Shown one piece after another: positions 8,460 to 20,206 of a stretch of DNA of 64,000 nt. Source of the DNA: Paraburkholderia flava (GTDB lineage: Bacteria > Pseudomonadota > Gammaproteobacteria > Burkholderiales > Burkholderiaceae). A model generated the notes under the pieces. The model saw nothing but the letters and a program-made list of their open reading frames with translations. It ran no database searches and was not told where the DNA came from. Location: NCBI RefSeq assembly GCF_004359985.1, contig NZ_SMRO01000001.1:1834152-1898151 (forward strand), in the 5' to 3' direction. Every line of letters begins with the position of its first letter. Within the stretch, counting starts at the first letter, position 1. The position numbers and the translations under genes are program-made.

Positions 8460-10061
8460 ATGCCAGTCTCTGAACTCAACCGTCGCCGCACATTCGCGGT
8501 CATTTCCCACCCGGATGCGGGTAAAACCACGCTCACGGAAAAGCTGCTGCTGTTCTCGGGCGCGATCCAGATCGCGGGTACCGTGAAGGGCAGAAAGAGC
8601 AGCCGCTACGCGACGTCGGACTGGATGGAGATCGAAAAGCAGCGCGGCATTTCGGTGGCGAGCTCGGTGATGCAGTTCGAGTACGGCGACGCCGTGATCA
8701 ACCTGCTCGACACGCCGGGCCACGAAGACTTCTCCGAAGACACGTACCGCGTGCTGACCGCCGTCGATGCGGCGGTCATGGTGATCGACGGCGCGAACGG
8801 CGTCGAAGCGCAGACGCTGAAGCTGCTCGAGGTGTGCCGCAGCCGCAAGACGCCGATCGTCACGTTCATCAACAAGCTCGACCGCGAAGTGCGCGAACCG
8901 CTCGATCTGCTCGACGAAATCGAACAGCATCTGGGCGTCGCCGCCGTGCCGTTCACGTGGCCGATCGGGATGGGCAAACAGTTCCAGGGCGTGTACGACA
9001 TCCAGCGCGACCAGGTGCGTGTGTTCCGCGCGGGGCAGGACACCGCAGGCGGTGCGGTCGAAACGCTGCAGGGCTTGAGCGACGAAGCGGGCGAAGCGCG
9101 TTTTGGTCATCCGTGGATCAAGGCCAAGGAAGAAATCGACCTGATCACCGGCGCGACGCCGACGTTCGACCGCGACGCGTTTCTCGCGGGCCAGCAGTCG
9201 CCGGTGCTGTTCGGCTCGGCGATCAACAACTTCGGCGTGAAGGAAATTCTCGACGCACTCGTCGACCTCGCACCGCCGCCGTCCGCGCGGATGACCGTGC
9301 AGCGCGCGGTCGAACCGAACGAGCCCAAATTCACCGGCGTCGTGTTCAAGGTGCAGGCCAACATGGACCTCGCGCACCGCGACCGCGTCGCGTTCATTCG
9401 CGTGTGCTCGGGGCACTTCGAGCGCGGGATGGCATTGAAGGTCACGCGCTCGGGCAAGATGTTCCGCGCGAACAACGTGGTGAGCTTCCTGTCGCAGCGT
9501 CGCGAGACGGTAGCCGAGGCGTACCCCGGCGACATCATCGGTATTCCGAATCACGGCACGCTGAGTCTCGGCGATACGCTGACCGAAGGCGAAGACCTGC
9601 AGTTCGTCGGCCTGCCGTTCTTCGCGCCGGAAATTTTTCAGACTATCGAAGTCGTCGATCCGATGCGCGCGAAGCAGCTCGGCGAAGCGCTGAAGCAGCT
9701 CGGCGAAGAAGGCGCGATCCAGGTGTTCCGGCCGGTGGTCGGCGGCGCGATGATTCTCGGCGCGGTCGGTCAGCTGCAGTTCGAAGTCGTGTCGCACCGC
9801 TTGTCGGCCGAGTACAAGGTCGACGTGCGGATCATGCCCGCGCGTTATCGGATGTCGCGCTGGGTCACCTGCGACGATGCCGCCGAACTGCGCCGCTTCA
9901 CCGATTCGTACGCGGCGCGGATCGCGCTCGATGCATCGAATGCGCCGACGTATCTCGCGTCGCACGTATCGGAAATCGAAGTCGCGCAGAAGGCATGGCC
10001 GAAGATCGTGTTCAACGAACTGCGCGAGCACTCGGGCGCGCCGTTCAAGAAGGCGCTGTAA
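8460..10061 (+). CDS. prfC: Peptide chain release factor 3 (RF3)
   Basis: Translational GTPase of 533 aa, the usual RF3 length. G1 is HPDAGKTTLTEK (residues ~17-28), the switch region includes RGISVASSVMQF, G3 is DTPGHEDFSEDTYR, G4 is NKLDRE. RF3 binds the ribosome after peptide release and uses GTP to eject RF1 or RF2. The C-terminal part (ending FKKAL) continues through domains II and III without interruption. It starts at the ATG at 8460. It is flanked by unrelated genes and appears monocistronic. Confidence 0.97.
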   Translation: MPVSELNRRRTFAVISHPDAGKTTLTEKLLLFSGAIQIAGTVKGRKSSRYATSDWMEIEKQRGISVASSVMQFEYGDAVINLLDTPGHEDFSEDTYRVLTAVDAAVMVIDGANGVEAQTLKLLEVCRSRKTPIVTFINKLDREVREPLDLLDEIEQHLGVAAVPFTWPIGMGKQFQGVYDIQRDQVRVFRAGQDTAGGAVETLQGLSDEAGEARFGHPWIKAKEEIDLITGATPTFDRDAFLAGQQSPVLFGSAINNFGVKEILDALVDLAPPPSARMTVQRAVEPNEPKFTGVVFKVQANMDLAHRDRVAFIRVCSGHFERGMALKVTRSGKMFRANNVVSFLSQRRETVAEAYPGDIIGIPNHGTLSLGDTLTEGEDLQFVGLPFFAPEIFQTIEVVDPMRAKQLGEALKQLGEEGAIQVFRPVVGGAMILGAVGQLQFEVVSHRLSAEYKVDVRIMPARYRMSRWVTCDDAAELRRFTDSYAARIALDASNAPTYLASHVSEIEVAQKAWPKIVFNELREHSGAPFKKAL

Positions 10062-10133
10062 CGCGGCTTGTCTTTTTATCACCGCCGGGCCGCCTCCGAT
10101 GGAGTCGCGGCCGGTGTCCTGTGAAAGATCCAC

Positions 10134-10736
10134 TCAAGGCTGACCAAGCTGGCGCATGACCAGCGCGGCTGCGTTGGCTACCGAACATTGAGTGGTATCG
10201 ATGCGTATGTCGGGCGTGGCCGGTTCCTCATAAGGGGAATCGATACCCGTGAAATTCTTGATCGCTCCCAGTCTAGCCAGCTTGTAAAGCCCTTTGGGAT
10301 CGCGTCGCTCTGCAATGGCGACGGGTACGTGCACGTGTACTTCGATGAATCGATGAGGTCCGGCAATCGCTCGTGCCAGTTGCCGGTCGGCAGCGAAGGG
10401 GGCGATCGCACAGACCAGCACCAGCAGACCGGCATCCGCCATCAGTCGACTGACTTCGCTTGCGCGCCGGATGTTTTCGTGTCGGTGCTCATCGGAAAAG
10501 CCGAGATCCCGACATAATCCGCCGCGCAGCGTGTCGCCATCCAGCAGGAAAGTGTGCTTGCCATTTCTGTGGAGCTGCAGTTCCACGGCGCTCGCGATGG
10601 TGGACTTTCCGGCTCCGGATAGACCCGTGAACCAGACGATGCCGGGCGTTTGTCGCAGCGACCCGGCGCGGTCCGTCGCACTCACTGCAGAAGCATGAGG
10701 GTAAATGTGTTGCGTGCTGTCGATTGGCAGATTCAT
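10134..10736 (-). CDS. cysC: Adenylylsulfate (APS) kinase
   Basis: A 200-aa CysC with Walker A GLSGAGKST (residues 38-46), the following FLLDGDTLRGGLCRDLGF and ENIRRASEVSRLMADAG segments, and the C-terminal RRDPKGLYKLARLGAIKNFT plus GIDSPYEEP motifs that bind APS. It phosphorylates APS at the 3' position to give PAPS, the sulfuryl donor. The usual SISPF segment is changed to CAIAPFAADRQ. No cysD/cysN (ATP sulfurylase) lies beside it; instead a sulfotransferase gene is divergent, which points to PAPS supply for sulfation rather than sulfate assimilation alone. The 5' leader of 26 or so residues before the core is longer than in the minimal enzyme. Confidence 0.93.
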   Translation of the reverse strand: MNLPIDSTQHIYPHASAVSATDRAGSLRQTPGIVWFTGLSGAGKSTIASAVELQLHRNGKHTFLLDGDTLRGGLCRDLGFSDEHRHENIRRASEVSRLMADAGLLVLVCAIAPFAADRQLARAIAGPHRFIEVHVHVPVAIAERRDPKGLYKLARLGAIKNFTGIDSPYEEPATPDIRIDTTQCSVANAAALVMRQLGQP

Positions 10737-11085
10737 TTAACCTCCGCGGCCGGCAGATAGTTTAGTGGGCTACGCCTGCCGGTGTGTTACAGCCGGAGTC
10801 GAAATATTTACGCCACTTTACCGGAGGCAGTCGGACGATCAATCAGAGTGTAAAACGTCGACATCGTATTACCGTTGCTTACGCGCATGACCCCACTGAA
10901 TAAACGGCTCTTCGCCATTTGATCCTCGCCGGTGCTGTTGAAGTATTACGGCGCCTTGCAAGAACGGGGCTCTTGAAGACCGTGGCGGCGCTTCATCCAT
11001 TAGCATTTCGGCCATTGGCGTCACGTCATGCCGGTCCTCGCCGGCATGGGCGAAACGTATGCCATTGCACGGCTTGGGATGATTT
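10737..11085. other. Divergent cysC / sulfotransferase control region, 349 nt
   Basis: It holds the promoters for both genes. A perfect 8-bp inverted repeat CATGCCGG-N6-CCGGCATG lies at 11027-11048, 37 nt before the sulfotransferase start, and could be an operator or an mRNA leader hairpin. The region is less GC-rich than the chromosome around it. Confidence 0.5.
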
Positions 11086-12210
11086 ATGCAAGAGACAGCG
11101 CCAACGATATCCCCGATATTCATACACTCGTTATTCAGATCGGGCAGCACTTACCTGTTCCACAAATTTCGGTCCACGGATAACTTTTATTGTTATCAGG
11201 AACCATGCAACGAAGCCCTCATCGATCTGGACAGAAATCCAGACGGGTTCATGAAATCTCCCGGCTACGACAGCCGTCTACTAAGACATCCCACACTTAC
11301 CGCCCCTTACTTTTACGAGAGTTACTGTATTCGCGATCGTCTAAAAGGGCTGTTCAGAAAAGCCTTTAGCTACGAAGACTATTTCACGGGTCCCACGCTT
11401 CCGGATGATCAAAGGGACTATTTCGCTACCTTGATCGACGCAGCGCCTAAACGACCGTTGCTGCAGTTCTGCCGAAGCGCAGGACGCATCGAAGCACTCA
11501 AGCGGGAATTCGGCGGCGTTCATATTCATCTCTGGCGAGAGCCGCGCGGTCAGTGGTGGTCATACAAAGTGTCCGACTACTTCGATGCCGCTACCCAGGC
11601 AACCTATAACGCGTTCCGGTTGCCGGAAGTGCTGATGAAAATCCGGACGCTCGCGAACATCCACTGCTTCCGGGGACGGTCCGTCAACCGGGAGGTTGGC
11701 TTTTACCGCAGTCATCCAATAGGTTCGCGAGAGAGCTACCTTGCGTTCTTCGGTATGTGGCTTTACTCATTCATCGAGTGCGAGCGACACACGTCTGAAA
11801 CCATCTGCATCAACAAGCTCAACAGCGAGGATTACCGTGCTCAAGTCGTGCATGCGTTGTCGCTCGAGGGCATCGACGGGTTGGCGTTCTGCGATGCCAG
11901 GCTGGCAGGTTCAGTGTTCCCGAAAGCAGAGGCGCGCTTTTACGAAAGTATCGAGGACGAAGTCGCGCAGGTGTTCTGCGAGTGCGGTTATGCCCGATCG
12001 GAGGTCATGTCGGCTCTAGCCGCGGGAAGGTCCGACATGCCGGCCACGTCGGATGTTCCGGGAGATGTCCTGCAGAAGGAGATTTCCCGGCTTCGGGCGC
12101 TGGCATTCACGCATTGGGACACGAAGAAAGCCGGCGAATATCGCGTGTTGCCGATGATCTCGTCGGCATGTCGACGCCTGGTGGAGAACCTGAAGCGACA
12201 CGCCGGGTAA
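11086..12210 (+). CDS. PAPS-dependent sulfotransferase-like protein, 374 aa
   Basis: The N-terminus contains FIHSLFRSGSTYLFHKFR, which has the form of the 5'-phosphosulfate-binding loop of sulfotransferases (R-S-G-S-T at residues ~18-22). A second segment, HIHLWREPRGQWWSYKVSDY (about residues 146-165), fits the 3'-phosphate-binding motif with its conserved Arg and Ser. Both sites needed for PAPS are therefore visible; the acceptor-binding parts are not recognised. The protein is soluble, with no signal peptide. Base composition is visibly more AT-rich than the neighbours, a sign of acquisition. The divergent cysC supplies PAPS. It probably sulfates a sugar, lipid or small metabolite, which remains unknown. 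The ribosome site is weak. Confidence 0.7.
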   Translation: MQETAPTISPIFIHSLFRSGSTYLFHKFRSTDNFYCYQEPCNEALIDLDRNPDGFMKSPGYDSRLLRHPTLTAPYFYESYCIRDRLKGLFRKAFSYEDYFTGPTLPDDQRDYFATLIDAAPKRPLLQFCRSAGRIEALKREFGGVHIHLWREPRGQWWSYKVSDYFDAATQATYNAFRLPEVLMKIRTLANIHCFRGRSVNREVGFYRSHPIGSRESYLAFFGMWLYSFIECERHTSETICINKLNSEDYRAQVVHALSLEGIDGLAFCDARLAGSVFPKAEARFYESIEDEVAQVFCECGYARSEVMSALAAGRSDMPATSDVPGDVLQKEISRLRALAFTHWDTKKAGEYRVLPMISSACRRLVENLKRHAG

Positions 12211-12613
12211 ATTCCATGCGACGTACCCCTGATGATCGCGTCTGCGAAGCGATGACCGCGAAACAGGGCCGACGGTCGTGCCGCACCGGGAAGCCTGTCA
12301 CGCCATCGCCGAAGACATTGAATCTTCGGCAGCAGGCAGCGTAAGCAGGCTGGCTCCGGCTGCCTGGAACCGGCCCCTGCGGCGGAAGCCTGCACGCCTT
12401 AAATCCAGTTGTACTGCACATCCGCGGGCATTTCGTCCGACAAAACACCCCATCGCCATAAAGTTCTGCCCATCGCTGCCGTAGATATTAAACGGGCGCG
12501 GAAAAAGAACGATTCCACCGGCAGATGTATTCCTTCGCATGCCCGACCGTTGCGTAAAACCGCGGGGAGTACACGCGCCGGCGTCGTGCTTGCCAACTGG
12601 AGGGACATTAAAA
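12211..12613. other. Leader of the chemoreceptor gene, 403 nt
   Basis: It contains the sigma-28 promoter described separately and a GGAGGG ribosome site at 12599-12604, 9 nt before the ATG. No other gene is seen. Confidence 0.55.
12459..12485 (+). promoter_or_regulatory. Flagellar sigma-28 (FliA) promoter
   Basis: TAAAGTTC at 12459-12466, exactly 11 nt, then GCCGTAGA at 12478-12485. The consensus is TAAAGTTT-N11-GCCGATAA: the -35 element matches at 7 of 8 positions and the -10 keeps GCCG. It lies 128 nt before a chemoreceptor gene, the classic target of this sigma factor. Confidence 0.72.
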
Positions 12614-14167
12614 ATGCTGAGCAAGCTGTCAATTCGCGCGAGCCTGAGCCTGATCGTCGCGTTCTTCGGCGTCGTGCTGGTGATCGGCGCCGCTGTCGGG
12701 CTGCTGTCGATTCGCGCCGGCAATGCATCGCTGCAACAGATGTACACCGTCAACACGCCGGCCGTCGCCGATCTCGAAGGGAGTGCGGGCCAGTTGCTGC
12801 GTCTGCGGCTCGCGCTTGCGACCTATGCGTCGCTGATCGATCTGAACGACAACGACGGCGCGAAGGCCGTGCTCGGCCGCTTCGACCAGTATCTGAAGAT
12901 TTCGAACGATCGACTTGATCACTATGTGTCGATTGCCGGTTGGGACGACGAGGGCCGGCGCCTCATCAAGGACATGCAGGACAAGCGCAATACGTTTCTG
13001 CACGACGGCGTCGATCTTGCGCTGGCCGCGCTGAAATCGGGCGACCGGAACGGCTTCGAGGAAATCCAGGCGCACAAGCTGCCGTCGCTCTACAACGGCT
13101 ATGAGAAGGCGATGCTCGCGCTGGAGAAGCGGCAGATCGATCACGGCGCGCAGCAGTACCAGGCCGCGCAGGACCGCTTCGTCGCGGTGAGTATCGCGGT
13201 GGTCGTCGGGATGGTGCTCGCGCTGCTCGGCGGATGGCTCGCGCGCGCGGGGCTGATGCGCGCGATCGTGCATCCGGTCGATGCGGCGATCCTGCAGTTT
13301 CAGCGTATTGCGGGCGGCGATCTGACCGAACGCGTCGTGGTCAGAAGCAACAACGAGATGGGCAAGCTGTCGGCGGCGCTGCAGAAGATGCAGGCGTCGT
13401 TGATCACGACGGTCAGCGCGGTGCGCGACGGCACCGAGTCGATCGATACCGGCGTGAGCGAGATTGCATCGGGCAACGCCGATCTGTCGCAGCGTACCGA
13501 GGAGCAGGCCGCGTCGCTCGAGGAAACCGCCGCGAGCATCGAACAGCTGACCTCGACCGTCAAGCAGACCGCAGAAAACGCGTTGCAGGCCAGCTCGCTT
13601 GCACACGATGCGTCGGGCCTCGCCGCGCGCGGTGGCGAACTCACGCGCGAAGTGGTCGGGACGATGCAGCACATCGTCGACGACTCGAAGCAGATTGCCG
13701 ATATCGTCGGCGTGATCGAGGGCATCGCGTTTCAGACTAACATCCTCGCGTTGAACGCGGCGGTCGAAGCCGCGCGCGCTGGCGAGCAGGGTCGCGGCTT
13801 TGCTGTGGTCGCGAGCGAAGTTCGTACGCTCGCGCAGCGTAGCGCGACGGCGGCGAAGGAGATCAAGGAACTGATCGACACGTCAACGACGCGTGTCGAA
13901 ACCGGTGCGAACCTCGTCGAGCGTTCGGGCTCGACGATGCAGGAAATCGTCGGCGCGATTACGCGGGTGAGTTCGATCATGGGCGAGATTGCGTCGGCGG
14001 CGGCTGAGCAGAGCAGCGGCATCGATCAGGTCAATCTTGCGGTCGCGCAGATGGATCAGGTTACGCAGCAGAATGCTGCGCTTGTCGAGCAGGCTACGGC
14101 TGCGGCGGCTTCGTTAGAAGATCAGGCGCATACGTTGCGGGCGGCGATTGCGGTGTTTAGGACTTGA
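12614..14167 (+). CDS. Methyl-accepting chemotaxis protein, 517 aa
   Basis: Transmembrane chemoreceptor. The first span is at residues ~10-32, the second at ~188-210, enclosing a periplasmic helical ligand domain of the four-helix (Tar/4HB) type. A HAMP linker follows ([20 protein letters not shown]), then a long signalling coiled coil with the conserved hairpin tip [20 protein letters not shown] and [20 protein letters not shown]. It controls CheA and thus flagellar rotation. No C-terminal CheR-tethering pentapeptide is present. ATG 12614 is chosen from the GGAGGG upstream and because the earlier in-frame ATG at 12539 gives an unlikely N-terminus. The ligand is unknown. A sigma-28 promoter lies upstream. 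Confidence 0.95.
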
Positions 14168-14475
14168 TGGGGGTAGTAGGGCGCCGAAGTATGTGCGACG
14201 GCCCTACGCCCGCTGTCGTGCGGCGGTTCCCGGCCAACAAGCGACGTTTGTTGGCGGCGACGCCATGACATTCGGGAGGCAGTTCCTGTTCGCAAGCGGT
14301 CATTCGATCACCGAGAGCCGGCGTCGTGTCACTGGCTCACGTCGCGTGCGAGGCCTGATGCCACCTCCGGAGACTTCGCCAAAAGCAGGCGAACAAGCTG
14401 GCCGGCGGCTGAAGTGTCTAGCGATCTGCAATGCTAAAATCCGCAAAGATCTGGCACTTTCTCCACTGGAGGCCC
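14168..14475. other. Left boundary of the AT-richer cassette, 308 nt
   Basis: Spacer between the chemoreceptor and the DUF262 gene. GC content drops from about 14400 onward. A GGAGG ribosome site at 14468-14472 precedes the next ATG. No tRNA, integrase or attachment-type repeat was seen. Confidence 0.45.
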
Positions 14476-15546
14476 ATGAGCAACCTAACAAAAATTGTCC
14501 AGAAGTTCGAGGCAGCGCAAAACGCACTGGTTCTTCAGGCTTCCGACCTTTCTCTGCAAACGATCGCGCAAATGGTGCAGAGCAAAGCGATTGATGTTTC
14601 GCCGAAATACCAGCGGCGCGAGCGATGGAAACCGCTTGCACAAGCAGAACTGATCGAGTCATTCTTGATCAATGTTCCCATTCCACCTGTCTACCTAGCG
14701 GAAGATGACTTTGGCACTTATTCGGTCATTGACGGTAAGCAACGCATCACGACAATTCATCGATTTCTTTTCGACCAGTTTGCCCTAGAGGGTCTTCATA
14801 AATTCCCGGAGGTCAACGGGCTCAAGTTCTCAAACCTGCCGCCGGAACTTTACAACGCTCTGACGATTCGGCCATACGTGCGAGTCGTTACGCTCTTAAA
14901 ACAAACGGATCCCGAACTCAAATACGAAGTGTTCACTCGACTGAACACTGGTGGCGAACCTCTTTTGCCCCAAGAAATTCGTAACGCGCTTTACCGAGGA
15001 TCGTTGAACGACCTGCTTTTTGAATTGGCGGATGCACCGTTCCTTCATCGGCAGTTGAAGATTGTGTCGATGAAAGAGACACCATATAAGGAAATGCAAG
15101 ATGTAGAAGCGGTTTTGCGTTTTCTAAGTTTGAGTTTGAACTGGTCGGACTTTAGCGGAAACATGCGTTACTCGTTGGATGCGTTCGCGGCGGCGAACCG
15201 TGACATCAGTAAGCAAAAGATCTCGGCAGCTAAGAAGAAATTTGAGACTGCTCTTGCGCGTTGCGAACATCTATGGGGAGACGATGCATTCAAACGACAT
15301 CAGGGAGCTGCGTATCGTGACCAGTTCATGTCAGCGATGTTCGATGCGCAGATGATAACTGCATCCGAATTAAGCGAAGCGCGGTACAACGCGCTTTGCA
15401 CCAAAACAACGACGGTTCGAAAAGAGACCTTGAAGCTTTTCAAGGATGATCGTTTCGTTGACGCGATCCGAGTATCTACGAACACACCCAGTAAGGTGCT
15501 GTATCGTATCGACACAATGAAAGAAGCGTTGAAGAATATTGCCTAG
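14476..15546 (+). CDS. DUF262 (GmrSD N-terminal-like) protein, 356 aa
   Basis: DUF262 proteins have a ParB/sulfiredoxin-like fold that in GmrSD-type enzymes binds or hydrolyses nucleotides to drive DNA cleavage. Visible motifs: YQRRERW (residues 45-51), ESFLINVPIPPVYL (61-74), VIDGKQRITTI (84-94, the conserved DGQQR-type motif as DGKQR) and FTRLNTGGEPLLPQEIRNAL (163-182). The HNH-type DUF1524 half found in full GmrSD is missing, so this is a stand-alone DUF262. ATG 14476 is supported by GGAGG 3-8 nt upstream. The stop is 1 nt from the next gene, so the pair is translationally coupled. The gene is AT-richer than its surroundings, suggesting acquisition. Predicted role: defence or toxin-antitoxin partner. 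Confidence 0.85.
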   Translation: MSNLTKIVQKFEAAQNALVLQASDLSLQTIAQMVQSKAIDVSPKYQRRERWKPLAQAELIESFLINVPIPPVYLAEDDFGTYSVIDGKQRITTIHRFLFDQFALEGLHKFPEVNGLKFSNLPPELYNALTIRPYVRVVTLLKQTDPELKYEVFTRLNTGGEPLLPQEIRNALYRGSLNDLLFELADAPFLHRQLKIVSMKETPYKEMQDVEAVLRFLSLSLNWSDFSGNMRYSLDAFAAANRDISKQKISAAKKKFETALARCEHLWGDDAFKRHQGAAYRDQFMSAMFDAQMITASELSEARYNALCTKTTTVRKETLKLFKDDRFVDAIRVSTNTPSKVLYRIDTMKEALKNIA

Positions 15547-15547
15547 C

Positions 15548-16495
15548 ATGAGCGCGAAAAACTCGTTGCTTGCAACATTGACCGTTCTCGGGGACTGCTT
15601 AAAGGACGCCGCGCTGATCGACACGGCTTTGACGGTCGAGCACAATCTACGCGCAAGCATGCTTCGACAAGGCTTGGCGGTGTTAGTCTTTGCGACAATG
15701 GAGTCATTCATCAGAGAGCGAACTGGAGAATTGCTTCGATCCTTCTCCAATCCTCATCTGGCGTTTTCCGACCTACTTCCTTCTTTACAAAAGGCCACTA
15801 CCATCGGGGCGTTAGACGGTATTCGTTTCCGTCTCAAGCTACAGCCAACACCGGACAAAATAAATTGGCTCGTCGGGGCACTGGCCCCCGTTGCGTCCGC
15901 GACGAGCAATCTTGCTCAGCTATCAACGTATTCCTTTGGCCAAGCCGCTTCGAATCTTGTCGAGGACGACGTTGCCGACATTTTGAGAGCATTTGGTGTG
16001 TACAGTCCGTGGGCGCAAATTACCGAACTTAGTAGGAGGTTGGGCGTCGGAACTCTGGATTGCGAAAGCGAATTTGTTACCATCAAGGAGCGCAGACACG
16101 ATTCTGCGCATGCTCTTACGGCGAGCGTCTTGCATCCGGATTTGGAAGGCTCGTTGCGTTCAGCGTTGGCGATTTGCATAGGATTTGACCTATTGCTCTC
16201 CCATGCGCAGCGGCTTTTCAACGATAAGCTCGGACCCAACAAAGACAATCGCCCCGCAATGAAGCACACGGACGTCCAATTGGTGTTCGTGGCCCCGAAG
16301 CCCGGATCAGCAGATCGCTTCATCGTGCGAAAAGAGCAACTGCCGCCGCCCGCGCCCACGCTGAAACGATCGCTCCGTATCTTGCCGGACTATCCTAGTG
16401 CCGTAACTTTCGCCCGTGGTTACGCTGGTTCTCGGAAGATTCAACTGGTCGTTCTAGACAGCACCTCGACGCCGACGGATTGGACGACCTGGTAA
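15548..16495 (+). CDS. HEPN-domain protein, probable RNase partner, 315 aa
   Basis: The mostly helical protein carries KERRHDSAHAL at residues 180-190, in which Arg183 and His188 fit the R-x4-6-H catalytic motif of HEPN ribonucleases. A matching upstream helix (FATMESFIRERTGELL, residues 48-63) is typical of the RiboL-PSP/MAE_28990-like HEPN families that are found next to DUF262 genes. HEPN proteins cut RNA during abortive infection or as toxins. The start follows the upstream stop by 1 nt; the real start is ATG 15548 rather than the TTG at 15539. The C-terminal ~90 residues are not recognised. Family placement is by eye; the R-x4-H motif is direct. Confidence 0.68.
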   Translation: MSAKNSLLATLTVLGDCLKDAALIDTALTVEHNLRASMLRQGLAVLVFATMESFIRERTGELLRSFSNPHLAFSDLLPSLQKATTIGALDGIRFRLKLQPTPDKINWLVGALAPVASATSNLAQLSTYSFGQAASNLVEDDVADILRAFGVYSPWAQITELSRRLGVGTLDCESEFVTIKERRHDSAHALTASVLHPDLEGSLRSALAICIGFDLLLSHAQRLFNDKLGPNKDNRPAMKHTDVQLVFVAPKPGSADRFIVRKEQLPPPAPTLKRSLRILPDYPSAVTFARGYAGSRKIQLVVLDSTSTPTDWTTW

Positions 16496-16997
16496 TTGGC
16501 AGTCTGAAGTTATCGAAAACATGTGTCTAAGCATCTGCCCCCCAGTCATCCTGCATGATTGATCTCTCAGCCATTTTTTGACTCGCCCATGAATGACAAT
16601 TAGGCGACCGACGACAATGTGCGATATTTCTTACTAAGCGAGGGCCTCCACCGCGTTCGAAGGCCGAAAGCCCGTCGGCAACGATATCACTCGCGAGTGA
16701 CCGTGGAACTTTGGAACTCGACGCTCGGCCCGCAACCGGCTGACCGGCCAAGAAGGGTCGTCTACGGACAATCGCATCAGAAAAAATCCTACCGCTTCGG
16801 CGCAGACCTCGGTCGGTCGCAAGAACTTTGATGCATCCGCCCTGGCAATCGTGGCGCGGCTACACGTAAGTCCGTGATTTGTGATCTGCGCCGTCGCGAT
16901 AGCCGCGGCACCCTACGTGCGCATCGGCGTCTCTCGTTACGAGTACGTCCGTCATTTACACTGACCGGATACCGGCTCAAGCAGGACAAGGTGCGAC
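16496..16997. other. Right flank of the cassette, 502 nt
   Basis: Lower GC than chromosomal genes here. Open frames of 60-75 codons have no ribosome site and no recognisable protein. No tRNA end, integrase remnant or direct-repeat boundary was found by eye. The last 20 nt contain AAGG before the DUF1349 start. Confidence 0.4.
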
Positions 16998-17576
16998 ATG
17001 ACGACGTTCAAAGAACTCAAATGGCTTAACGCCCCGGCATCGTCCGAACTTCGATCGGGAGACCTGTGGGTCAAGACCGGCGATCGAACCGACTTCTGGC
17101 GCGGGACGTTCTACGACTTCTGGCGCGACAACGGTCATTTCGGTTACGTCACGGTGTCCGGAGATTTTTCTGCGGAGGTCACCGTCATCGGTCGCTATGA
17201 AGCGCTATACGACCAGGCCGGCTTGATGATCCGCGTGAGCGAGGCTGACTGGATAAAAGCCGGGACCGAGTTTTCCGATGGCGAGGTGTGTATGTCGGTC
17301 GTCGTCACGAACGACCACTCCGACTGGTCGATGCAACGTCTGACGGCTGCGTCCGGTGAACTGCGTTTGCGCGTGACGAGACACGCCGAAGCGGTGCGCG
17401 TGCAATACCTGCGTGAATCGGACAGCCAGTGGCAGATGGTGCGCCTCGCGTATTTGCCGCCGACGGCCAGCGTCGATGTAGGCGTGATGTGTTGCTCGCC
17501 GCAGCGGGAGGGTTTCGAGGTGTTGTTTCGGGATCTGACGATAGGGCCGGCGATTGAGCGTCGGCTGCATGATTGA
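16998..17576 (+). CDS. DUF1349 (concanavalin-like fold) protein, 192 aa
   Basis: The sequence is typical of the DUF1349/YesU family of beta-jellyroll proteins: DRTDFWRGTFYDFWRDNGHF near residues 29-48, YDQAGLMIRVSEADWIKAG around 70-90, CMSVVVTNDHSDWSMQ near 96-112 and the C-terminal EGFEVLFRDLTIG. The family is cytoplasmic, related to glycoside-binding folds, with no known enzyme activity. ATG 16998 has a GGTGCG/AAGG site upstream. It is probably monocistronic. It sits just after the DUF262-HEPN cassette but returns to normal GC-rich codon use, so it is likely part of the resident chromosome. Confidence 0.85.
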   Translation: MTTFKELKWLNAPASSELRSGDLWVKTGDRTDFWRGTFYDFWRDNGHFGYVTVSGDFSAEVTVIGRYEALYDQAGLMIRVSEADWIKAGTEFSDGEVCMSVVVTNDHSDWSMQRLTAASGELRLRVTRHAEAVRVQYLRESDSQWQMVRLAYLPPTASVDVGVMCCSPQREGFEVLFRDLTIGPAIERRLHD

Positions 17577-17836
17577 AGCGGTGTTGCGACTACAGAAAGG
17601 CAGGTGAGTCGCGCACATCGGATTTCGCTGTCGTCGCTACGGAACATCCGCACGTTCATCGTTAAGACGTCGATCAGGCTTCCCAGATTTCGGGCGACGA
17701 TACGACCACAAGGCCGTCCATCGGCTCCGCGCTACACGTCCCTCCCTTCGCTCTCCGACTTCGCCTATCCTGTCGACATACGCGCCCGGCGACTAGCACC
17801 CGCCCCACCGCACGCCCTCCGACACCAGGCCCCCCC

Positions 17837-20206
17837 GTGACTGTCCGCAACCTCGACGCACTCTTCCGTCCGCACTCCGTCGCTGTGATCGGCGCTTCGC
17901 AGCGGCCCGGCAGCGTCGGCGCGATGGTCTGGTCGCGGCTGCTGCAAGGCGGTTTTCCCGGACCGCTGTGGCCCGTCAATCCAAAGCTCGACACACTCGA
18001 CGGCCATCCGGTCGCGGCCAATACCGCCGACCTGCCCGAAGCGCCGACCGTCGCGCTCCTCTGCACGCCACCCGCGACGTGGCCCGGCATCGTGCACGGG
18101 CTGGGCCGGATCGGTACGCGCGCGGCGATCATCGTCGGCGAGGCGCGTAGCGACGCGGACCGTCAGGCCGTGCAGGACGCGCTCGCGGCCGCGCGGCCGC
18201 ATCTGCTGCGGATCGTCGGGCCGGGCAGCCTCGGTGTGATCACGCCCGCGCTGCGCGCGCATCTCGGCGCGCCGTCGTGCACGGTCGCGGCGGGCGGCGT
18301 CGCGTGGGTGTCGCAATCGAATGCGCTGACCAATGCGGTGCTCGGCTGGGCGCATGCGCGTGGGCTCGGTTTCTCGCATGCGGTTGCACTCGGCGGCGAG
18401 GCCGACGTCGATGCGGGCGACGTGCTCGACTATCTCGCGAGCGATCCCGGCACCCGCGCGATCCTGCTCGAACTCGACGCGGTGCGCTCGGCGCGCAAGT
18501 TCATGTCGGCGGCACGCGCGGCTGCGCGCAACAAGCCGGTGCTCGCGCTGCGCTCGGGCCGCGCCGATCCCGACGACGCGTTGTACACCGCAGCGTTCCG
18601 GCGTGCCGGCATGGTGCGCGTCGACGCGCTCGACGATCTGCTCGACGAAATCGAAACGCTCGGCGTGGGCCGTGTCGCCGCGAGCGACAGCGCGACGCTG
18701 ATCGCCAGCGATCGCGGTGTCGCGACGCTTGCGTGCGATGCGTTCGCCGCCGCAGGTGACACGCTCGCGCACTGGCCACTGTCCACCGCCGATGCACTCG
18801 CGCAAACGCTGCCTCATGTCGCATCCGGCAATCCGCTGGTGCTCGGCGACATCGCGCGGCCCGAGCATTTCGGTGCGGCGCTGCGCGCGCTCGCCGATCA
18901 TCGCGCGAGCGGCACCGCGTTCGTCGTGCATGCATCGACGCACAGCGCGCCCGCAGCCGACGTCGCGCGCGTGCTGATCGAACATCAGCGTTACGCGTAC
19001 CGTGGGTTGCTCGCGTGTTTCTTCGGCGGCGTCGATGCAGCGACACGCGATGCGCTGCACGCGCAGGGCATTCCGGTGCACACGACACCGCAGCGCCTCG
19101 CGCGCGCGTTCGCACGGCTCGTCGATTATCGGCTCGGCCGCGAACTGTTGATGCAGACACCCGAAAGCGCGCCAGCCGAAGTTCCCGCGTCGATCGATGC
19201 CGCTCAGGCCGAAGCGCGCGATGCGCTCGCACGAGGCGTGAACGAATTACGCGGCGAGGCGGCCGCGCGGCTCTTCGCGCATTTCGGACTGACGGTCGCG
19301 GCGGCATCGTCTGAGACGAACAACAAAGCCGTCGTCGACATCGCGATCGAACTCCACGACGACGAGAATTTCGGCCCCGTGTTCCACTTCACGACCCCGT
19401 CGCCGGATGACGTCGCGGCGCCGATGCGTGTCTACGGATTGCCACCGCTGAACCCCACACTCGCACGCGACATCGCCGCGACTTCGCCGTACGCGCGCCA
19501 GGTCGCGCCGGAACCGACGCTCGCGGCATTGACCGCGCTGTCGCAGGCGGTCTGCGACATTCGCGAGATCGTTGGCCTGACGTTGACGCTGCGCGTGTTG
19601 AAGGATCGCGTGCAACTCGTCGAGCCGCTAGTGCGTCTCGCCACGACGCGCAGCCGGCTCGCGATCATGCCGTACCCGCGACGCTTCGAAGAAACGCTGG
19701 ACTGGCACGACCTGCGCGTGACCGTGCGGCCGATCAGGCCGGAAGACGAGACTGCGCATCGCGACTTCGTCGGCGCGATGACGCAAGACGATCTGCGGCT
19801 GCGCTTCTTCGGCGCGGTCGGCACGTTCGATCATTCGCAGCTCGCGCGGATGACGCAGATCGATTACGACCGGGAGATGGCTTTCATCGCGACCGTCGCC
19901 GGCGAGAACGGCGCGCCGCGCACGCTCGGCGTCGTACGCGCAATTGCCGATCCGGACAACGATACCGCCGAGTTCGCGCTCGCGATCCGTTCCGACCTGA
20001 AGGGCAACGGACTCGGGCGACTGTTGATGGAGCGGATCATCGCGTACGTGCGCTCGCGCGGCACGCGCTGGCTGGTCGGCGAGGTGCTGCGCGAGAACAC
20101 CGCGATGATCGCGCTCGCGAAGCGCTGCGGCTTCACGATGACGACGACCGAAGATCCGGGCGTCGTCGGCTTCAGAATGGCGCTCGAATCATCCGCGCCA
20201 CGCTGA
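17837..20206 (+). CDS. Acyl-CoA-synthetase-like / GNAT fusion (Pat-type), 789 aa
   Basis: The N-terminus LFRPHSVAVIGASQRPGSVG begins a CoA-binding Rossmann domain (residues ~5-130), followed by a succinyl-CoA-ligase-like flavodoxin region (~145-440), a shortened ATP-grasp remnant (~465-610) and a C-terminal GNAT acetyltransferase (~625-785; acetyl-CoA loop SDLKGNGLGRLLMERII). The architecture is that of Pat protein lysine acetyltransferases, which acetylate and inactivate acetyl-CoA synthetase. Here the protein is about 100 residues shorter than Salmonella Pat (about 886 aa), and the ATP-grasp lacks its usual substrate-binding core, so ligase activity is improbable. It starts at GTG 17837; no ATG is suitable. 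Confidence 0.85.
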   Translation: MTVRNLDALFRPHSVAVIGASQRPGSVGAMVWSRLLQGGFPGPLWPVNPKLDTLDGHPVAANTADLPEAPTVALLCTPPATWPGIVHGLGRIGTRAAIIVGEARSDADRQAVQDALAAARPHLLRIVGPGSLGVITPALRAHLGAPSCTVAAGGVAWVSQSNALTNAVLGWAHARGLGFSHAVALGGEADVDAGDVLDYLASDPGTRAILLELDAVRSARKFMSAARAAARNKPVLALRSGRADPDDALYTAAFRRAGMVRVDALDDLLDEIETLGVGRVAASDSATLIASDRGVATLACDAFAAAGDTLAHWPLSTADALAQTLPHVASGNPLVLGDIARPEHFGAALRALADHRASGTAFVVHASTHSAPAADVARVLIEHQRYAYRGLLACFFGGVDAATRDALHAQGIPVHTTPQRLARAFARLVDYRLGRELLMQTPESAPAEVPASIDAAQAEARDALARGVNELRGEAAARLFAHFGLTVAAASSETNNKAVVDIAIELHDDENFGPVFHFTTPSPDDVAAPMRVYGLPPLNPTLARDIAATSPYARQVAPEPTLAALTALSQAVCDIREIVGLTLTLRVLKDRVQLVEPLVRLATTRSRLAIMPYPRRFEETLDWHDLRVTVRPIRPEDETAHRDFVGAMTQDDLRLRFFGAVGTFDHSQLARMTQIDYDREMAFIATVAGENGAPRTLGVVRAIADPDNDTAEFALAIRSDLKGNGLGRLLMERIIAYVRSRGTRWLVGEVLRENTAMIALAKRCGFTMTTTEDPGVVGFRMALESSAPR

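What the first reader, a model, noticed from the sequence alone, without database searches (positions are those of the whole stretch)
14476..16495. Stand-alone DUF262 protein coupled to a HEPN protein: candidate defence or toxin-antitoxin cassette
Seen directly: two genes 1 nt apart, AT-richer than the resident chromosome; the first has the DUF262 motif DGKQR (as in VIDGKQRITTI) but no HNH half; the second has R183-x4-H188 (RHDSAH), the HEPN catalytic pattern. Known: DUF262 is the N-terminal part of GmrSD-type DNA defence enzymes, and HEPN proteins are RNases of toxin and abortive-infection systems; pairs of these families are listed in predicted defence genes. Inference: the two act together, DUF262 sensing a phage nucleotide or modified base and HEPN killing the host or cutting RNA. 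This is the most likely under-described system here.
Basis: partly seen in the sequence, partly recalled or inferred. Interest (0 to 1): 0.78.

Follow-up and report, generated by a model that had tools for sequence, protein, structure and literature searches.

The report
DUF262–HEPN two-gene phage-defence cassette
Two adjacent genes on a probably acquired stretch of a bacterial chromosome look like a small antiviral system, one protein that probably senses invaders by binding nucleotides and one that probably cuts RNA; it is a new, diverged version of a kind already shown to protect E. coli from a phage.

Summary
Gene A (14476-15546, 356 aa) is a stand-alone DUF262/GmrSD_N protein without the HNH half. 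Gene B (15548-16495, 315 aa), 1 nt downstream, has a HEPN fold with invariant R183-x4-H188 plus a C-terminal alpha/beta domain. The pair is the lowest-GC 2-kb stretch of the window and sits in a variable interval between two core genes; 12 of 12 congener regions examined lack it there. Close relatives keep the genes adjacent in three phyla, some in prophage-like, integrase- or restriction-linked contexts. Further DUF262 relatives are followed by either a HEPN protein or an OLD/DUF3696-type ATPase (Menshen). In a DUF262 tree this locus falls with the HEPN-coupled group, which also contains relatives of PD-T4-2, a system shown to protect against T4. The kind is therefore known: the HEPN/'ParB' operon was tabulated in 2013 and a DUF262+HEPN system validated in 2022. 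New is a separate clade whose HEPN partner the PADLOC models miss and which has an extra conserved C-terminal domain. Most likely mechanism (inferred): NTP-gated sensing by DUF262 releases HEPN RNase activity.

The parts
14476..15546 (+). Gene A: stand-alone DUF262 (GmrSD_N) protein, 356 aa; putative NTP-gated sensor
14611..14616 (+). QR motif (Q46-R47)
   Evidence: Invariant in 49 rows; motif named for DUF262 in PMC12137116 (passages)
14731..14745 (+). DGKQR motif (D86-R90)
   Evidence: Invariant in 49 rows; K88 is R in 1 of 26 paired sequences, L013
14932..14946 (+). FxxxN motif (F153-N157)
   Evidence: F153 and N157 invariant in 49 rows
15548..16495 (+). Gene B: HEPN protein, 315 aa; putative RNase effector
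15548..16222 (+). HEPN alpha-helical domain (residues 1-225)
   Evidence: Secondary structure of the model; top matches align within residues 1-221
16094..16111 (+). HEPN motif RHDSAH (R183-x4-H188)
   Evidence: R183, A187, H188 invariant in 43 rows and in 26 of 26 paired sequences
16280..16492 (+). C-terminal alpha/beta domain of B (residues 245-315), function unknown
10062..17836 (.). Variable interval between a prfC-like gene (8460-10061) and a CoA-ligase/acetyltransferase-like gene (17837-20206), both named by eye, in which the pair lies
   Evidence: Both genes found together in 12 of 12 congener regions, 173-3430 bp apart; no tblastn match (E<=1e-20) to A or B in those regions

Best explanation
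A two-gene anti-phage defence cassette of the DUF262-HEPN (PD-T4-2-like) kind. Gene A is a ParB-like NTP-binding sensor with a helical C-terminal part and no nuclease; gene B is the effector, a HEPN RNase. In uninfected cells A holds B inactive. An infection signal, most likely phage DNA or a DNA modification, changes A's nucleotide or oligomeric state and frees B, whose R183/H188 site cuts host or phage RNA and stops the infection, probably through growth arrest or death. Shown here: the two domain families and predicted folds, invariant motifs, recurrent adjacency, correlated divergence, mobile or restriction-linked contexts of relatives, and the place of A in the HEPN-coupled DUF262 group that includes PD-T4-2 relatives. 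Inferred: complex formation, trigger, RNA target, outcome for the cell.
For: Domains and folds. Three DUF262 motifs invariant; arginine mutants meant to stop NTP hydrolysis in the DUF262 domains of GrwA and GrwB abolish anti-phage activity (PMC12137116, passages). HEPN R/H invariant; E52 and N136 align with conserved positions of other HEPN partners. Pairing: 5 of 6 loci; both genomes with B among 399 of the order and both among 59 relatives, the window's genome counted in each. Correlated divergence: r 0.80 for 26 pairs, 0 of 2000 shuffles as high. Tree: HEPN-partnered and PD-T4-2-type DUF262s together, apart from 24 ATPase-partnered ones (SH-aLRT 95 and 97). 3 of 3 PD-T4-2_B loci found sit next to a DUF262. 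Contexts: integrase (L144), serine recombinase and tape-measure-like gene (L143), N-6 methylase and type I specificity genes (L145); plasmids and two P2-like phage genomes. Deleting PD-T4-2 in its native strain greatly raises T4 plaquing (PMC9519451).
Confidence: 0.68

Rival explanations
1. A plain toxin-antitoxin module: B is a constitutively toxic HEPN RNase, A its antitoxin, and the pair persists by addiction rather than by phage sensing.
For: Two-gene arrangement with 1-nt spacing, HEPN toxin-type motif, relatives of such pairs on plasmids and in phage genomes.
Against: A is a 356-aa ParB/BrxU-like protein, not a small DNA-binding antitoxin or an MNT; the same DUF262 family is paired with DUF3696-type ATPases or, once, a RelA/SpoT protein, and in GmrSD/BrxU/SspE goes with a nuclease domain (PMC10952713); PD-T4-2 is a validated defence system. 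TA and defence are not exclusive.
Confidence: 0.15
2. A DNA-targeting direct-immunity system: DUF262 itself binds and acts on modified phage DNA and HEPN is an accessory or regulatory subunit rather than a suicide RNase.
For: DUF262-DUF1524 enzymes act on modified DNA (PMC10952713); restriction genes beside L145 and an N-6 methylase gene upstream of the L017 pair; PMC11980606 treats a stand-alone DUF262 (PtuX) as a possible nuclease (passages).
Against: No nuclease domain was found in A; catalytic R/H of B is invariant in 43 rows, so HEPN catalysis is probably needed.
Confidence: 0.12
3. Ordinary acquired genes with no defence role.
For: Lone pair in a variable interval with unrelated accessory genes.
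Against: Both frames intact, motifs invariant and pairing kept across three phyla and in viral contigs.
Confidence: 0.04

Closest known systems
PD-T4-2 (Vassallo et al. 2022)
   Same: DUF262 plus HEPN; A matched by the PD-T4-2_A model (3.5e-37); both in the HEPN-coupled DUF262 group. Deleting PD-T4-2 in its native strain dramatically raised T4 plaquing (PMC9519451, section 7).
   Different: B not matched by PD-T4-2_B (168 positions), about twice as long, with a C-terminal alpha/beta domain; separate clade in the tree (8 rows, SH-aLRT 100).
Menshen (that NsnA/NsnB are Menshen genes is recalled; DUF262 plus OLD-type partner: PMC10952713)
   Same: Gene A's best PADLOC model is NsnA (1.5e-79); but every DUF262 scanned (9 of 9, whatever its partner) scores NsnA above PD-T4-2_A, so this model does not separate the two.
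   Different: Partner is HEPN, not an NsnB-type ATPase; the ATPase-partnered DUF262s form one side of a branch that excludes A (20 rows, 100/98; 24 rows, SH-aLRT 97).
GmrSD / BrxU / SspE type IV restriction enzymes
   Same: DUF262 with QR, DGxQR, FxxxN motifs; fold match to BrxU and SspE.
   Different: No DUF1524 HNH half.
RiboL-PSP-HEPN and MAE_28990 HEPN families in operon with ParB (Anantharaman et al. 2013)
   Same: Same HEPN family by Pfam and same operon idea (PMC3710099 table, passages).
   Different: 2013 entries are table lines without a tested function; no L-PSP fusion here.
ptuXYZ (PMC11980606)
   Same: Stand-alone DUF262 protein encoded with an RNase (passages).
   Different: There the RNase is BECR-fold and an ATPase gene is added; described as putative defence.

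Membership tests
DUF262 / GmrSD_N (PF03235) | Pfam match above curated cut-off | tested here: met
   88.9 bits against 33.2
DUF262 / GmrSD_N (PF03235) | QR, DGxQR and FxxxN motifs | tested here: met
   Invariant in 49 rows
GmrSD-type IV restriction enzyme | DUF1524 HNH nuclease half in the same or partner protein | tested here: not met
   No DUF1524 match in A or B at E<=10
HEPN superfamily | All-alpha HEPN fold | tested here: met
HEPN superfamily | Conserved R-x4-6-H | tested here: met
   43 of 43 rows
HEPN superfamily | RNase activity | not testable with these tools
   Needs biochemistry
RiboL-PSP-HEPN (PF18735) | Score above gathering cut-off | tested here: inconclusive
   Query 20.7 against 28.4; 42 of 43 members match at E<=0.01, best 1.1e-9
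PD-T4-2 | DUF262 gene followed by HEPN gene | tested here: met
   same order in the three PD-T4-2_B loci
PD-T4-2 | Match to PD-T4-2_A model | tested here: met
   3.5e-37, but NsnA scores higher
PD-T4-2 | Match to PD-T4-2_B model | tested here: not met
   No match in the protein scan or in the own genome
PD-T4-2 | Protection against T4 | not testable with these tools
   Needs a plating assay
Menshen | NsnB-type ATPase gene next to the NsnA-type gene | tested here: not met
   All 4 NsnB matches in the genome lie on contig C2, gene A on C1; the neighbour is HEPN
HEPN-MNT toxin-antitoxin | Minimal nucleotidyltransferase partner | tested here: not met
   Partner is DUF262; no nucleotidyltransferase match in A at E<=10

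The most novel reading that the evidence does not exclude
Stand-alone DUF262 proteins are a general NTP-gated alarm unit onto which different effectors have been plugged (HEPN RNase, OLD/DUF3696 ATPase, possibly a RelA/SpoT alarmone enzyme), and the clade in this window is a distinct defence type in which the HEPN effector carries its own second sensing domain (residues 245-315), so that two inputs are needed to fire it.
Probability: 0.2. Interest if true: 0.6.

Novelty: new variant of a known kind. Interest (0 to 1): 0.36.

Why it matters
DUF262-HEPN pairs turned up often in the scans made here, the papers seen give no mechanism for such a pair, and PADLOC's partner model missed gene B and 10 of 10 other HEPN partners scanned. 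A compact pair with well-predicted folds and invariant catalytic residues would make it directly testable how a ParB-like NTPase switches an RNase, and would widen detection of this defence kind.

Tried and rejected
Menshen membership: rejected after the partner and tree tests. PD-T4-2 membership in the strict sense: not claimed, because the PD-T4-2_B model does not match. The DUF1349-like neighbour (16998-17576) was tried as a synteny anchor; blastn and tblastn found no other neighbour of the window beside its two best congener copies, so the CoA-ligase-like gene was used. Repeats in 10000-18000: none judged to bound the interval. Promoter-like sites 3 against 1.6 (sd 1.3) in shuffles, terminator-like 3 against 2.9 (sd 1.5). 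Rfam: nothing at gathering score in 10000-18000. tRNA: none in the window. Sequence search of the PDB: nothing for B, two weak hits (E 0.75, 0.92) for A. NCBIfam: no match. Gene B in plasmids by tblastn: none. Viral contigs with A alone: none; with the profile of B: none; with the profile of A: 90. Paper search for NsnA/NsnB: 73 papers, the 15 listed unrelated. Plain Foldseek searches did not run. The weak fold match of B's C-terminal domain to AcrIF5 is not used as evidence of function.

Results against the reading, kept in the counts: phylum scan, 19 of 29 inspected relatives of A have an ATPase partner and 1 none; order scan, 9 of 29 have no recognised partner (one of them cut by a contig end), 4 an ATPase, 1 RelA/SpoT; L012 is a truncated A without B; Pfam gave no match for the B homologues of L143 and L145. 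Rows dropped from the tree: L129 (short) and L130 (same gene as L142); 10 of its 74 rows, without a recognised partner, lie outside both the HEPN and the ATPase groups.

Full report
What is in the sequence. Two genes on the + strand: A, 14476-15546 (356 aa), and B, 15548-16495 (315 aa), one base apart. A longer start for A (ATG 14431) exists, but the shorter start gives the length of most listed relatives. GGAGG stands 3 nt before the A start. The pair has GC 0.510 in a window of 0.644; 1 of 620 windows of that size is as low.

The pair is a unit. In the genome-contig scan 5 of 6 loci carry B right after A: Rhodoferax, a Comamonadaceae and a betaproteobacterial MAG, a Symbiobacteriaceae MAG and Nocardioides; the sixth, L012, is a truncated A. 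Among 59 relatives 2 have B (own and G031), both next to A. In 399 genomes of the order 2 have B (own and G698), both next to A. In viral contigs 90 relatives of A were found and 80 kept; I inspected the best 17, several of them near-copies: 16 have an ORF downstream, 16 of 16 with an R-x4-H motif, 5 of them matching the B profile. Of the three closest, Pfam recognises the HEPN of L144 (2.4e-10) but not of L143 or L145, though these match the B profile at 3.7e-60 and 8.2e-57. Distances of 26 A-B pairs correlate (r 0.80; 0 of 2000 shuffles reach it); 18 of those pairs were inferred from equal contig length, and shared descent alone could produce this.

Where it travels. L144 has the pair beside a 480-aa gene without Pfam match and a phage integrase; L145 beside an N-6 methylase and a type I specificity gene; L143 beside a serine recombinase and a tape-measure-like gene (match below its cut-off). 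Of the hits to A in 196 plasmid and 27 phage records I looked at 8 chosen by hand: annotated or Pfam HEPN partners in an Acinetobacter, a Klebsiella, a Bradyrhizobium and a Shewanella plasmid and in two P2-like phage genomes (L016, L021; for L021 the Pfam match is), a DUF3696 protein in a Pantoea plasmid, no clear partner in a Nostoc plasmid.

The site here. The downstream CoA-ligase-like gene has a match at E<=1e-100 in 56 of 58 genomes of the genus. In 12 congener regions fetched, the prfC-like gene and this gene stand together with 173 to 3430 bases between them; at E<=1e-20 none of these regions matches A, B, or the APS-kinase-, sulfotransferase-, chemoreceptor- and DUF1349-like genes of the window's interval (gene names by eye). 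In the window the interval is 7.8 kb. G031, which has a distant A-B pair, has it on another contig (L002), not at this site (L101).

Partner swapping. Around A-like genes in 398 genomes of the phylum (62 with a match) loci were given for 30; of the 29 besides the query, 9 have a HEPN partner (9 of 9 by Pfam), 19 an ATPase (read by motif; L044 checked as NsnB 4.1e-116 and AAA/DUF3696), 1 none. In the order (35 of 399 genomes), of 29 loci besides the query: 11 HEPN by Pfam or profile, 4 more with an R-x4-H motif but no Pfam match, 4 ATPase (2 checked by Pfam), 1 RelA/SpoT, 9 none or other. In the DUF262 trees the ATPase-partnered genes form one side of a branch (20 rows, support 100/98; 24 rows, SH-aLRT 97). 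Gene A lies with the HEPN-partnered genes and the PD-T4-2-type loci (40 rows: 33 HEPN, 4 PD-T4-2-type, 3 without a recognised partner; SH-aLRT 95; quick tree, midpoint root, several long branches); 10 further rows without a recognised partner lie outside both. PD-T4-2_B matched 3 of 398 genomes, each beside a DUF262; L128 was put with them by eye before the tree was built. One of the 4 motif-only partners (L130) is among those three.

How it probably works. PD-T4-2 was shown to defend in its native strain and in E. coli K-12 (PMC9519451, section 7); the review PMC10952713 (passages) lists both DUF262 and PF18735 HEPN in it. DUF262 domains of related systems bind and hydrolyse NTPs and regulate a nuclease (PMC10952713, PMC12137116, passages). 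By analogy A senses an infection signal, probably DNA-linked, and gates B's RNase. The sensing step, RNA target and cell fate are inference. In the passages I saw of seven papers none gives a mechanism for a DUF262-HEPN pair; the searches were in an open-licence library only, and the supplements and figures of PMC9519451 were not seen.

Verdict. A real, probably functional defence cassette of a known kind; a diverged variant, because its HEPN subunit escapes the PD-T4-2_B model, is about twice as long, carries an extra conserved C-terminal domain, and its DUF262 belongs to a clade of its own (8 rows, SH-aLRT 100).

Noticed in passing
L132:57-1091 (G553): A DUF262 gene overlaps a downstream gene with a RelA/SpoT domain (PF04607 3.2e-8): possible DUF262 sensor with an alarmone-synthesising effector.
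   Followed up: no
L127:4-732 (G800): The gene after this DUF262 relative (18 nt away) starts like a protein kinase by eye; not scanned.
   Followed up: no
window 10134-12210: An APS-kinase-like gene (- strand, by eye) stands beside a putative sulfotransferase gene (by eye; no Pfam match at 1e-3) in the same variable interval; could be an acquired sulfation pair.
   Followed up: no
L144:8032-9471: 480-aa gene with no Pfam match at 1e-3 between the DUF262-HEPN pair and a phage integrase; its C-terminal part looks nuclease-like by eye.
   Followed up: no
window 10062-17836: The prfC-like to CoA-ligase-like interval varies from 173 bp to 7.8 kb and holds different genes in congeners, a HipA-like one by eye in L106: a gain-and-loss site.
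   Followed up: partly
L112:2598-3470 (G557): HEPN partner of a DUF262 gene carries a C-terminal helix-hairpin-helix motif (HHH_3 3.3e-13), another C-terminal add-on to the HEPN effector.
   Followed up: no
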